DNA from: Massariosphaeria phaeospora
Lineage: Eukaryota; Ascomycota; Dothideomycetes; Pleosporales
Assembly: GCA_011032825.1 (NCBI GenBank)
Contig: JAADJZ010000004.1
Location: 1,612,001 to 1,676,000, forward strand
Length of the DNA stretch: 64,000 nucleotides
Direction: 5' to 3'
Position numbers and translations under genes: made by a program
Shown: one piece after another, positions 58,550 through 64,000 of the stretch
Layout: every line of letters begins with the position of its first letter
Position numbering within the stretch: the first letter of the stretch is position 1
The notes under the pieces: model-generated
The model's input: only the letters and a program-made list of their open reading frames with translations
The model's database searches: none
What the model was told of the DNA's origin: nothing

Positions 58550-59240
58550 GGGTGATGCGCGACGCTCGCAGATCGATACGAAGAACTTTACAATGGTATT
58601 CAGCTCAGTTTGAGTCTTCTGTTGTCGTCCGAACATATTCTGTTCATTTTGGGTCGTCTGTTGTCATCCAAACAGATCTCGAGCGTGGTCGGTAGTCTCA
58701 GACCTCGAAGGGCTTTCTAGCGCGGGTTACAGGTCTTCTCAGCATTCGCAAACGTTGCGAAAATTCTCTATCGCTTTAATAACTTTTTCTGGAGGAGGTT
58801 TGCGAGCTACTCGCAAGCAACGATGATTGAATGCGAGAACTTGGGGTCGTCACCTCCAGCTTGGCAGGAGTTAACCTAATGACATGTCACCACGCTCGCA
58901 AACGTTGCGAGAATTCTCAATCGCTTTAATAACTTATTCTGAGCTTAGGAAGTGTTTGCGAGCTACTCGCAAGCAACGGTTGTTGCCTGCGAACTCAGGG
59001 TCGTCCGTCGCCTGCTTCTAGCTCAGCAGGATATTATCTAATGACAGGTTTCAACGCTCGTAAAATTTGCGAGACTTCTCAGTGGAACAAGTAGGCTGTT
59101 CTGAGCTCAGGAGACGTTTGCGAGCTATTCGCAAGTAACGGTTGTTAAATGCGAGCTCGGGGTCGTCCGTCGCCCTCGGCAGGAGACAACCTAACGACAG
59201 GTTGGGACGCTCGCAAACTTTGCGAGAGTATGGAGTAGCT
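58550..59240. repeat. Tandem repeat, unit about 156 bp, with paired palindromes
   Basis: Each unit contains two palindromes. One is TCGCAAACGTTGCGA, at 58746, 58896, then variants near 59058 and 59211 (spacings 150, 162, 153). The other is TTGCGAGCTACTCGCAA, at 58800, 58956 and, with one mismatch, 59118 (spacings 156, 162). Between them lie conserved stretches: ATTCTCAATCGCTTTAATAA, GGTCGTCCGTCGCC and AACCTAATGACAGG. The unit is therefore well defined, and the palindromic core is better conserved than the rest. No coding remnant is seen. Confidence 0.8.
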
Positions 59241-59691
59241 TATCTCGATCGACATCATTCCAAAACATCCTTGAGACCCAGTTTCCGAGCAGTGGTCATC
59301 GGTTCGCAAGCGCGGAGACCGTTTCGGGTGTGGGGTCCATTAGAACTTGACGGAAAGTAGCTATGATGTTCGCGGTCGAACGGAAAGTTTTCTAAACCTT
59401 TATTTGATAGCTTTGTATCGATATCTTCTCCTCCAAGATATTTCCAAGCAGTAGTGAGCCCATGCGAGCTCAGTGGCGTCGCCGGTCCAGTATACATACA
59501 AATGGAATGCAACAAGTAGTCGCGTTGCTTGGGATTTCCTGTGAGAGTTCTCGCAATGATGAGGAAGCTGATTGAGACCATCTATGATGTTGTGAGCGTT
59601 TGCGAGTAGTATTGCTGCGGGGAAAAGCGGGTGGCCGTGACTAGCTTAAGCGCCTAGTTGCACATTGGAAAGGCTTACCGGTACCGGTACT

Positions 59692-59729
59692 GTGTTTGCG
59701 CACGTGCCGCCCGTGTCGCGTGGCGCCCG
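59692..59729 (+). repeat. Left terminal inverted repeat of the pogo-type element
   Basis: 38 bp, exact reverse complement of 61769-61806; ends GGCGCCCG on the inner side. Confidence 0.92.
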
Positions 59730-59841
59730 AAAATCAACATGCTCACTATTACAAAGATGAGGTTATTGCAACAGCAATACAAGCTATGATCGCGAGATTT
59801 TTTATTGTCGTTACTCTGTACATACATGCGATCACTTTGTA

Positions 59842-61760
59842 CTATCTATATTTCTTCGGAAAAACGATTGCGCAGCCCCGAGAGTTGACTTTAGGTGGAG
59901 CGGCCGGTGCAGCGTCTAGAGACGACGCGACAGCTGCAGAGCCGCCCTTGGCTCTCTTTGCCCTGGGCTTCGACGGAGGCCTTTTTGAGGCTTTTCGCTT
60001 GGTAGAGGAGGCGTTTTGTATAGCTTTTTTAGTGTTTTGGGCGTCGATTTTGGCCGCGCGGTCAGCAGCCTTGGCCGCCTTCTCCTGATCCTTCACTACC
60101 TTAGCTGCCTCTCTCGCCACACGCCTCTCCTCAGCCTCCTGCTCTCAGAGGAGTTTTGCAGCAGCTTGAAGCTCCTTTCGGTTAGCTTTTGCCCGCTGTT
60201 TTTTTCTCTTTTTCTTGCTCTTTCACAGCGTTACGTGCACGAGCCTCTCGAAGCTTGCGCGGTGACTAGAAGACAGCACCACTATAGTACTCCTGCCGCT
60301 GCTGCAAGTCGAGAGGCTTGCCGCGCTTTTTGTAATTTCTCTTAGCAGTAAGGGCGTCGCGCAGGCCACTGTTCTTATCGTGGAGGAGTTGGTTTTGTAC
60401 CTGGAGTTGGTGGAGGGTTTGGAAGAGCGTCTTTGACGCGTCAGTGATAGTACTGGTCACTGCAGCGCGTATTTGAGAGTTCAAACGGCTCCAAGGGACC
60501 TCCCTGAGGGCCACTGAGGCTGCTTCACCTTCCTCCTGTCCCTTGCTTTTGAAGCGTTTTAGCACAGGCTCAGGATTCATAGGCCATATACCAGTAGCTT
60601 CAAAGGAGCGTTTAATAAGCTCAGTCTTGAGCGAAGACACCCACGCTCTCTAGAACAGTAGGAAGAAGTCTCCCTTGTAGACAGGCGTTATCTCGAAGCT
60701 TCGCTGGAGGTGAGTAGTAAGCTCCTTAGTGTAGGAGCTGCTGAGAGGTTTGAAGCAAACAACGTCAAGAGGCTGCAGCGAGTAGGTTGAATGAGGCGGA
60801 AACACCATAAGGAGGATCCTGTGAGTGTTGCAATACTCGAAAAACTCCATAGTAAAGTAACTGCCGTGGCCATCAAGGATAAGGAGGCGCCACTCCCTCT
60901 CTCGCCGCGCTTTCTGCTTTGTTCTGCGGTTGAAAACCTGCTCTAACTAGGCTAATCCAACGTCGTTGTTCGTCCATCTAGATAGTGTTGAAGTCACAAA
61001 CACGTCGTGCTTTCCTGCTTCAATAGAAGCTACCCAAGTAGACTGCAGGTTGCTAGATGCGCTAGCAAAGATAAGGCCGGGCAGCAGCGTCGTCCTATCT
61101 GCACAAACAGTTGCCAGAACAGTTACCTATTCACGGGAGCTATCCTGAAGTGAGTCCTTCACCTCCTTTCTCTCCTAAACGTTCCGACTAAACACCCGTT
61201 TTGAGCGTCCTGTGACACTAATCATAAAGCCCTTTTCATCTATATTGTAGGTATTAGAGGGGAGTACGTTGTACTCCTTTATCTTAGAGTGCAGCAGGTT
61301 AAAGTACTGTTTGTACTTAACGTTTGAATCAGCTTTGTAGCGAGAAAAGTCCATCCTAGAGGTCTATTTTGAGACGAGATGATGGCCGTTTCGGTGCAGA
61401 AAGCGCGTCACCTAGGCCTGGCTCACAGGCTGTTCAGCAACTGAGGACGCGTAATTTTGAATTATATCTCTTGTAGGAGGCAGGGCTTGCTTGCTAAGAC
61501 TTTCAATATAGCGTACAAGCTCGGCTTCTTGTTGTGCGTTGAGCTTGCTTTAGGTGTTGTTTTTCGCGTCGACTGGGGCCTGACAACCGCGGTGTCTTCG
61601 GGACAAAGTAGTTCTGCTCACACCCTATTTATTAGCAATTGTAGTATAGCAGAGTTTCTCTCCTGCATCTAGCGATTTAATTTCTTCAAGCGCGTCTTCT
61701 ATAGCTGCCGTGGTGGTTGAGTTATAACGCGTCAAAAGTAGTGGCTTGTCTGAAGTTTTG
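59842..61760 (-). pseudogene. Decayed Fot1/pogo transposase (DDE superfamily)
   Basis: One long reading frame interrupted by stops. In order: an N-terminal helix-turn-helix region (IEDALEEIKSL, then TTIANK*GVSRTTLSRRHRG); LVRYIESLSKQALPPTRDII and SQA*VTRFLHRNG (CENP-B-type HTH); the first catalytic Asp in YNIDEKGFMI; DRTTLLPGLIF; the second in LLILDGHGSYFT; YSLQPLDVVCFKPL; RSFEATGIWPMNPE; LDLQQRQEYYSGAVF*SPRK; and a Lys/Ala-rich tail ending in PKKYR. At least nine in-frame stops are present; seven or more stand where Trp is expected and read TAG. A frameshift lies in an A/T run at about 60199-60205. No ATG is visible at the start. Not functional as read. Confidence 0.85.
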
Positions 61761-61768
61761 GTGTTCTG

Positions 61769-61806
61769 CGGGCGCCACGCGACACGGGCGGCACGTGCGC
61801 AAACAC
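61769..61806 (-). repeat. Right terminal inverted repeat of the pogo-type element
   Basis: 38 bp, exact reverse complement of 59692-59729. One extra base separates it from the TA on this side compared with the left end. Confidence 0.92.
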
Positions 61807-61881
61807 GGGTATCCGACTAGTGCACCATTAAAATAGCCTTGCTATCCCACATTTTTGAGGGATTTCCACCCACAGTCAAAC

Positions 61882-62675
61882 ATGGCCGAATCTATTGATG
61901 AATTTTTCGCAGATGACAGACTTACTGACTCCAATCTACGCGACAGCGTACTACACATCCACAAATATCTCGAGCGCAAAGCCACGGCACAGGAAACTGT
62001 GCAAAGCATAACGGCTTCCCTGAGCGCGATCTCTCTCTCCGAGGTACTGGATGAGTGCATTGTTCGTGCGGCTGAGCAGCTGCCAGAAACCCACAATGAC
62101 TTAGTCGAGTTGGTTGTGCAGTTAAGGTCTCAGCAGCAGCACAAGAGCGAAAATGACGGTGCTGAGTTCGATCATTCATTGGTTATGGCACTCGGAGAGA
62201 GGTGGGTATGCTACGGTGATCCGGATCCACAAAACGCGTGGAAAGAGGAAGCACGCGCTGAATGGACAAACTTGAATTATTTCGCGGCGCTTCTGTTCTC
62301 AGCCGGGATCAAGAGATTAGCATCATTCGGGGGGAGAAGTCTCCAAATGACGCTGAAGAGAAGATCATGGGGAGTTAACTGGGGTGGCCTAGAGAGTAAG
62401 TTATGTTCGTTCCCTGTAACCGTGATTAAAGACTAACGAGTGTGACTCCAGATACTTCTGATAGTATAATCGCGTTCGAGGGCCATGCTGAAGCCGCCGC
62501 GCATTGGATTATTATTTGTGGAAGACAGCTGTATGATGAAAGCAATGACGTTAAGACGGAGTTCACGACACTCCAGGCAAATCTAGCATGGATATTAGAA
62601 CTAGACGACCTGAACAACGATATCAAGTCCAAGTTGCAGGAAGCCAAGACAGCGATGGATGAAATTAGCGCATAA
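61882..62675 (+). CDS. DUF3632-like fungal protein
   Basis: Exons 61882-62395 and 62452-62675, joined over a 56-nt GT-AG intron with a GACTAAC branch site, encode 245 aa. It starts MAESIDEFFADDRLTDSNL. Helical pattern with IVRAAEQLPETHNDLVELV in the middle, then ERWVCYGDPDPQNAWKEEAR and EWTNLNYFAALLFSAGIKRL, resembles the DUF3632 family of fungal proteins with unknown function; I hold this family call with moderate confidence. The C-terminal exon ends with a helix rich in Lys/Glu. The pogo-type transposon ends only 73 bp before the ATG, so the native promoter may be displaced or replaced by transposon sequence. The frame itself is intact. Confidence 0.65.
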
Positions 62676-62768: not shown

Positions 62769-63350
62769 TCGATGCTCGCGTTAGTTGCGAAGCATCTCGC
62801 AAGTTTCTGCGGCTCACGATCTCTCAATTGGCCCCGCGTTTGGCTGTTTCTGAGTTGTTTTGATCCATTCGCAGCCAGAGGCGTTGGTGTTGCATATGCC
62901 CCCCTGAAATAGATCAAAACCGAACCTGAACGCTCGCAATAGTTGCGAAGTATCTCGCAAGCTTCGGCGACTCATCCCCTCTCAATTGATGCCGCACTTG
63001 GTCGTTTCTGAGTCGTATTGATCTATTCGCAGCCGGAGGGGTCAGTGTTGTATATGCCCTCCTAAAATATATCAAGACTGAACATGAACCCTCGCATCAG
63101 TTGCGATGTATCTCGAAAGCTTCGGCGACTCGTCCTCTCTCAATTGACCCCGCATTTGGCTGTTCTTAAGTCGTTTTGATCCATTCGCAGCCGGAGGCGT
63201 CGGTCTCGTGTAGGGTTTCCCAATATATTATATATTAAACTAGACCTCAACACTCGCGAGTGTTGCAAAGTATCTGACATGCTTCTGCGCCTTATTACCT
63301 CTCAACTAATCGCGCTTTTGGTTGTTTCTGACTCGGTTTCGTTGATTCGC
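62769..63350. repeat. Tandem repeat, unit about 158 bp, four units
   Basis: GCTCGC or variant starts each unit at 62774, 62932, 63090 and 63252 (spacings 158, 158, 162). Each unit carries TTGCGAAG.ATCTCGCAAG near its start, CTCTCAATTG in the middle and a GATCCATTCGCAGCCGGAGG block near its end. The TCGCAA/TTGCGA palindromic core is shared with the array at 58.5-59.2 kb, but the sequence between cores is different. Confidence 0.8.
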
Positions 63351-64000
63351 AGCCGGAGGTGTCGGGTAGGCCTTGTACCTAGGATGCTTGCTTGCAACCT
63401 TGCGATGGCCGCGTAAAAGCCGCGATAGTGGCGAGCATCTTCTTGCACATGTCTTCAGTAGTCTTCTACCTTGCGAGCTGCTCGCAAGCTATGCTCGTTG
63501 ATCCGCAGCCCAGAGGCGTTGGGTAGGCCTTGTACGTAGAATGCTTATTCACAACCTTGCGGTGCCTCGTAAAAGCCGCGATAGTGGCGAGCATCTTCTT
63601 GCTTACATCCCTAGCTAATTCCCTGCTTGCAAACTCGTCGCAAGTTATGCTTGTTGATTCGCAGCTAGAGGCGTTAGGTAGGCCTTATACGTAGGATACT
63701 TGCTTACAACCTTGCGGCAGTAGCCTCGTAAAAGCCGCGACTGTAGCGAGCTTCTTCTTTCTTACATTCTAGGCTATTTTCTAGATTGCGAGCTCCTCGC
63801 AACCTTTGCTTGTCAATTCGCAGTGGTCGTAAGGGTGAAAGTAACGCTAAAGTTTTACAGGACTTATGTTTCAGCGTCGTAAAAGCTGCGACAGTAACGA
63901 GCATCTTCTTTCTTATATTCCTAGCCATTTTCCTAGCTCTCCAGATCCTCGCAAGCTTTGCTCGTCGAATCGCAGTAGTCCAAAGCCTAGGAGTGATACT
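63345..64000. repeat. Tandem repeat, unit about 155 bp, continuing off the window
   Basis: The block TTCGCAGCnnGAGG recurs at about 63345, 63498, 63652, 63813 and 63965. CGTAAAAGCCGCGATAGTGG recurs near 63412, 63568, 63735 and 63886. Palindromes such as CTTGCGAGCTGCTCGCAAG (near 63471) and TTGCGAGCTCCTCGCAA (near 63786) sit once per unit. The first landmark is shared with the previous array, so the switch from one unit type to the other happens at that point. The array runs to the window end. Confidence 0.78.

What the first reader, a model, noticed from the sequence alone, without database searches (positions are those of the whole stretch)
58550..59240. 156-bp repeats carrying two different perfect palindromes per unit
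TCGCAAACGTTGCGA and TTGCGAGCTACTCGCAA use the same half-site (TTGCGAG) in opposite arrangements, alternate along the array and are better conserved than the intervening DNA. This suggests binding of a dimeric protein at nucleosome-scale spacing, possibly a chromatin-organising or boundary system.
Basis: partly seen in the sequence, partly recalled or inferred. Interest (0 to 1): 0.75.

Follow-up and report, generated by a model that had tools for sequence, protein, structure and literature searches.

The report
Single-locus fungal array of paired half-sites
In one place of a fungal genome, about fourteen repeats of roughly 156 bases carry short mirror-image sites that stayed nearly unchanged while the DNA between them drifted almost to randomness, which points to a protein that binds there, around one conserved gene.

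Summary
In Massariosphaeria phaeospora (Pleosporales), 14 units of 150-162 bp span 58.7-64.3 kb, split by a decayed pogo-type transposon and an intact DUF3632 gene. Every unit has a divergent site A (CTCGCAA-N3-TTGCGAG); nine of 14 also have a convergent site B (TTGCGAG-N3-CTCGCAA), 61 bp after A in seven of nine. All eight perfect 7-3-7 sites found in the 42-Mb assembly lie here. Comparing the left block with the right units that keep B, the A-B spacer is 30-40% identical (random 25%), the half-sites 73-96%. Half-sites alternate in direction at 10-11 bp. The two arms change independently, against an RNA or cruciform hairpin (low power). Best reading: a homotypic array bound on one DNA face by a dimerising or oligomerising protein, acting locally. 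Not shown: the protein, its binding, any chromatin role, or conservation in other species. Against an ordinary regulon: the dyad is not enriched elsewhere, and the other eight DUF3632 loci lack it. The chromatin-boundary idea is untested. A second, unrelated one-strand array lies 4.7 kb downstream, beyond the window.

The parts
58745..59351 (+). Left block (subfamily L): units starting at A sites 58745, 58895, 59057, 59210; the fourth unit keeps A but its B is decayed
58745..58761 (.). A site, unit 1 (TTCGCAAACGTTGCGAA; both outer bases changed symmetrically)
58800..58816 (.). B site, unit 1, no mismatch
58895..58911 (.). A site, unit 2, no mismatch
58956..58972 (.). B site, unit 2, no mismatch
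59057..59073 (.). A site, unit 3, one mismatch
59118..59134 (.). B site, unit 3, one mismatch
59210..59226 (.). A site, unit 4, no mismatch
59690..61809 (-). Later insertion: decayed pogo-type (DDE_1) transposon with 48-bp terminal inverted repeats (92% complementary) and TA at both ends; no long open frame; not part of the array
   Evidence: exact ends read from the sequence, uncertain by a base or two
61882..62675 (+). Intact DUF3632 gene (245 aa, intron 62396-62451) lying between the two blocks
62775..63409 (+). Right block, subfamily M: 4 units (A at 62775, 62933, 63091, 63253); B absent; a third half-site follows A in three of them
63410..64000 (+). Right block, subfamilies R1 and R2: A at 63410, 63566, 63725, 63876 and, beyond the window, 64029, 64181; B at 63471, 63627, 63786, 63938 and, beyond, 64090, 64242; array ends near 64290 (L003:6290)
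63471..63487 (.). B site, no mismatch
63786..63823 (.). B site, no mismatch, followed by two weaker half-sites: four half-sites of alternating direction at offsets 0, 10, 20 and 31
   Evidence: offsets read from the sequence

Best explanation
The array is a homotypic cluster of binding sites for a sequence-specific protein that reads the half-site TTGCGAG and dimerises or oligomerises along one face of the DNA. Half-sites alternate in direction at 10-11 bp, so neighbouring monomers would sit on the same side of the helix. In nine units two such clusters, A and B, stand about 61 bp (about six turns) apart, and the unit is repeated about 14 times. Shown from sequence: presence at one locus, conserved sites in drifted spacer, near-constant A-B distance, 10-11 bp phasing, and no sign that the two arms change together. 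Inferred: the protein and its cooperative binding. Inferred more weakly, from position alone: that it acts in cis on the DUF3632 gene, whose start codon would lie about 0.4 kb after the left block without the transposon and whose stop codon lies 100 bp before the right block, or on the gene-poor stretch around it.
For: All perfect 7-3-7 sites of the assembly are here: 4 of 4 B and 4 of 4 A. With 6-bp cores, 6 of 8 divergent and 6 of 6 convergent sites are here (reversed controls 7 and 2). In the units with exactly 61 bp (2 left, 3 R1, 2 R2; two of nine dropped), left against R1 and R2: inner spacer 0.30 and 0.40 (random pairs 0.25, 95th percentile 0.36), A 0.73 and 0.96, B 0.90 and 0.89; A-to-B distance is 61 bp in 7 of 9 units, while B-to-A takes six values from 90 to 101 in 8 intervals (Levene p = 0.03). 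Half-site pairs: convergent at 10 bp (7) and 11 bp (3), divergent at 10 bp (8), with 0.003-0.01 expected per shuffle for those seen in shuffles. Over the 46 half-sites of the 14 A and 9 B sites, the C of TTGCGAG is kept in 46, the A in 45 and the G between them in 43; 21 of 46 are exact and 36 have at most one mismatch. Arms do not covary beyond shuffles: A 80.2% paired cells against 79.7%, B 85.7% against 84.9%. No recurring dyad of this strength in 27 control loci (121 kb; 26 of 27 have at most 2 copies, one has 3) or in 14 five-kb tiles outside the array (at most 2), against 6 and 8 in the array tiles; the control loci are those around transposon copies and DUF3632 genes, not random ones.
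Against: No protein is identified; none of 40 open frames scanned with Pfam, some of them tens of kb away, gave a DNA-binding domain other than the transposase piece of the inserted element. Near matches are not enriched elsewhere, so no regulon supports a transcription factor. The other eight DUF3632 loci show no array in the 1.5 kb of flank held on each side. M units lack B, R1 units have degraded A sites, and one of the nine B sites (63938) has lost one arm. Some half-site distances (25 bp in tandem, 36 bp convergent, three each) do not fit the 10-11 bp phasing. No relative's DNA was read, so conservation between species is untested.
Confidence: 0.6

Rival explanations
1. Old neutral satellite: units spread by unequal crossing-over, and the dyads look conserved because short inverted repeats are repaired or copied onto each other (template switching).
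For: Tandem, single-locus, with weaker matches at the edges and neighbouring subfamilies more alike than distant ones; two A sites have both outer bases changed in a paired way.
Against: Spacers near random identity while sites stay; arms do not covary overall; A-B distance mostly kept without indels.
Confidence: 0.17
2. The units act as RNA: a non-coding transcript with repeated small hairpins (7-bp stem, 3-base loop).
For: A and B both can pair; the left block folds somewhat better than shuffles (mean z -0.76 and -1.67 on the two strands, 4 tiles; right block -0.64 and -0.48, 10 tiles; control 52-58 kb 0.05 and 0.11, 40 tiles). A second one-strand repeat array and base skew follow downstream.
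Against: No covariation in the stems beyond shuffles (low power); R1 units lose pairing at inner positions; no Rfam match at gathering score in L003-L005, which include the array from 58001 on; the downstream array has z near 0.
Confidence: 0.08
3. Part of a larger special chromosome region (58-71 kb), for example a short regional centromere or a pairing locus, with the sites serving that function rather than the gene.
For: About 13 kb with few genes, mostly single-locus sequence and two kinds of repeat arrays. Centromeres of Zymoseptoria tritici, another Dothideomycete, are 5.57-13.55 kb, each unique in sequence, and contain expressed genes (PMC4589918, passages seen).
Against: The same passages say those centromeres show no common motif and are overall poor in DNA repeats; nothing here measures CenH3; the other chromosomes were not scanned for similar regions.
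Confidence: 0.08
4. Subterminal repeats of a DNA transposon.
For: Clusters of half-sites in both directions lie on both sides of an intervening gene.
Against: The two blocks have the same, not opposite, orientation; the unit was found nowhere else; the transposon found between them belongs to a separate multi-copy family.
Confidence: 0.03

Closest known systems
Heat shock elements (HSF sites)
   Same: [quoted passage not shown]
   Different: Unit is TTGCGAG with 3-4 bp gaps (10-11 bp period), not nGAAn with 5-bp period; tandem 156-bp higher-order unit; one locus only
Satellite DNA with a protein-binding box (CENP-B type)
   Same: Nucleosome-scale tandem unit with a conserved site-like motif in drifting sequence (general knowledge; reviews seen only as a search listing)
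   Different: About 14 units at one locus around a gene, not large arrays; the site is a dyad in two arrangements
Homotypic transcription-factor site clusters
   Same: Many copies of one site next to one gene (general knowledge)
   Different: Sites sit in a tandem array with near-constant inner spacing, on both sides of the gene, and are not enriched elsewhere in the genome
Xist A-repeat / sme2-type repeated-motif RNAs (for the downstream array only)
   Same: Many same-strand copies of a GC-rich core with A-rich linkers (recalled comparison; passages on meiRNA at sme2 in PMC12566771)
   Different: No transcript shown, no structure signal

Membership tests
Heat shock element | nGAAn units in alternating direction | tested here: not met
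   Alternation is seen, but the unit is TTGCGAG, so it works like an HSE in layout only
Zn2Cys6 (CGG) dyad | CGG half-sites, inverted or everted | tested here: not met
   Half-site consensus TTGCGAG has no CGG; the motif definition is recalled
Satellite DNA | Tandem head-to-tail units | tested here: met
   14 units, all + strand
Satellite DNA | Abundant, large or multi-locus arrays | tested here: not met
   Single locus in the assembly; diverged copies and collapsed repeats could be missed
CENP-B box satellite | CENP-B box sequence | not tested
   No search for that motif was run
DNA-transposon subterminal repeats | Blocks in opposite orientation at two ends, with terminal inverted repeats | tested here: not met
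   Same orientation; the one inverted-repeat pair of 40 bp or more in the window is that of the inserted pogo-type element
Structured RNA repeat | Compensatory changes in stems | tested here: inconclusive
   Observed equals shuffled, with only 13 and 8 distinct sequences
Regional centromere | CenH3 occupancy | not testable with these tools
   No ChIP data
Chromatin boundary / insulator | Stops spread of chromatin marks or enhancer action | not testable with these tools
   No functional data

The most novel reading that the evidence does not exclude
A locus-specific nucleoprotein scaffold: an unknown fungal protein polymerises along alternately directed half-sites at one chromosomal place only and, together with the second one-strand repeat array 4.7 kb downstream, marks a single special chromosome region such as a centromere, pairing site or silencing centre.
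Probability: 0.12. Interest if true: 0.85.

Novelty: new variant of a known kind. Interest (0 to 1): 0.55.

Why it matters
Fungal binding sites are usually scattered over many promoters. Here a well-defined dyad, apparently kept by selection for long enough for its spacers to drift almost to randomness, occurs at one locus only. If a dedicated protein binds it, this is a simple, defined system for asking how a repeated array of sites organises or controls one place on a chromosome. The half-site and spacing are explicit enough for a direct pull-down.

Full report
Place and organism. The window is C34:1612001-1676000 of a 42.08-Mb assembly in 51 contigs. Two proteins encoded in it match deposited Massariosphaeria phaeospora proteins at 99 and 100% over the aligned part, on a contig of the same length, 2,182,507 bases, so this is a pleosporalean fungus. 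I read 24 kb beyond the window.

What is there. Scanning for TTGCGAG half-sites in 7-3-7 arrangement gave two kinds of site: A, divergent (CTCGCAA-N3-TTGCGAG), and B, convergent (TTGCGAG-N3-CTCGCAA). Cutting at A, with some degraded A sites placed by homology to their neighbours, gives 14 units of 150-162 bp: four in a left block (58745-59351) and ten in a right block (62775-64290). A profile of these units recovers all 14 at E <= 2.3e-22, all on the + strand, and no further copy above its inclusion threshold in 50-72 kb. The right block has three subfamilies: M (4 units, without B), R1 (4) and R2 (2). A weaker single half-site follows B about 31 bp on; it points one way in the left block and the other way in the right block. 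Between the blocks lie a decayed pogo-type transposon (48-bp terminal inverted repeats, DDE_1; 73 matching pieces in the genome including its own, a lower bound) and an intact two-exon DUF3632 gene whose translation equals deposited protein P0001.

More than chance. In the whole assembly TTGCGAG-N(0-8)-CTCGCAA occurs 4 times, all here and all with a 3-base gap (reversed control 1). CTCGCAA-N3-TTGCGAG occurs 4 times without mismatch, all here. With 6-bp cores, 6 of 8 divergent and 6 of 6 convergent sites are here (reversed controls 7 and 2). With up to two mismatches the dyads are not enriched over reversed controls: 131 against 195 and 162 against 169, locus included. The unit itself was not found elsewhere (searches by similarity, so strongly diverged copies could be missed).

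Are the sites conserved beyond the spacer? Yes. Between subfamilies, mean identity is 0.74 for A, 0.54 for B with M units and 0.86 without them, 0.39 for spacer (0.43 without M); two random 17-column windows reach the A+B value in 253 of 20,000 draws, draws with many gaps being skipped but counted in the total. That test used 13 of 14 units (59210 left out), and its alignment was cut at A, which favours A. Without any alignment, 56 of 74 eight-base word placements shared by the left and R1/R2 blocks overlap a site by 5 or more bases in both, 3.3 expected; for the M block 8 of 22, 0.5 expected. Comparing directly the units with exactly 61 bp between A and B (7 of 9), left against R1 and R2, the inner spacer is 0.30 and 0.40 identical (random pairs 0.25, 95th percentile 0.36), while A is 0.73 and 0.96 and B 0.90 and 0.89; R1 against R2 gives 0.52, 0.69 and 0.87. 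Over all 46 half-sites, 21 are exact and 36 have at most one mismatch.

Geometry. A-to-B distances are 55, 61, 61, 61, 61, 61, 62, 61, 61; B-to-A distances are 95, 101, 92, 95, 98, 90, 91, 91. So the A-B stretch mostly kept its length while its sequence drifted; the other spacer did not (Levene p = 0.03, small sample). Half-site pairs pile up at 10-11 bp: convergent 7 and 3, divergent 8 at 10 bp. Further distances fall partly near 20 and 30 bp (19, 20, 21, 29, 30, 31) and partly not (25 and 36 bp, three each). From the B site at 63786, four half-sites stand at 0, 10, 20 and 31 with alternating direction (read from the sequence). This is close to one helix face. A and B are therefore best seen as two junctions of one alternating lattice, as in heat shock elements, and not as two unrelated palindromes.

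Protein site or hairpin? In a stem, changes in one arm should be matched in the other. Overall they are not: paired cells are 80.2% against 79.7% in shuffles for A and 85.7% against 84.9% for B. Two A sites have a matched change of both outer bases, but the total equals chance. Power is low (13 and 8 distinct sequences). Folding is mildly better than shuffled in the array, as any inverted repeats would give. Half-sites varying independently is what a protein reading each half-site would leave.

Wider locus. Beyond the window, 64.3-71.4 kb is gene-poor and skewed in base composition. From 68.96 to 71.0 kb it holds a second array: 31 profile matches at E <= 1 (25 of them below 0.01), 31 of 31 on the + strand, with core ATGTGCGGCGTGAGCGAGTCGCC followed by A-rich linkers. 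It too is at this locus only (6 matches with up to 3 mismatches, all here, reversed control 0; itself plus one 55-bp stray match). It shows no RNA-structure signal. Two unrelated arrays side by side raise the possibility of a special chromosome region. Short centromeres of unique sequence with expressed genes are described in Zymoseptoria tritici (PMC4589918, passages), but those lack a common motif and are poor in repeats, and nothing here tests it.

Verdict. Evidence against an ordinary transcription factor is the absence of enrichment elsewhere.

Noticed in passing
L004:959-3011 (window scale 68959-71011, beyond the window): Second single-locus repeat array: 31 profile matches at E <= 1, all + strand, GC-rich core ATGTGCGGCGTGAGCGAGTCGCC plus A-rich linker, spacing often 50-60 bp; no RNA-structure signal.
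   Followed up: partly
[not shown]
   Followed up: partly
59690-61809: Decayed pogo-type transposon with 48-bp terminal inverted repeats, many relatives in the genome (73 matching pieces, the best at 92-98% identity), RIP-like base bias, inserted about 73 bp upstream of the DUF3632 start codon.
   Followed up: partly
L003:6300-10000 (window scale 64300-68000): Low-GC stretch with C over G skew and weak two-copy repeats spaced mostly 87-279 bp, found only here in the genome.
   Followed up: partly
L004:4028-5287 (window scale 72028-73287): Glycosyl hydrolase family 16 gene on the minus strand, the first recognised gene downstream of the arrays.
   Followed up: no
G000:C51:799730-799784 (L049): Isolated 55-bp, 84% match to the downstream repeat region, with no tandem repeats around it.
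   Followed up: yes
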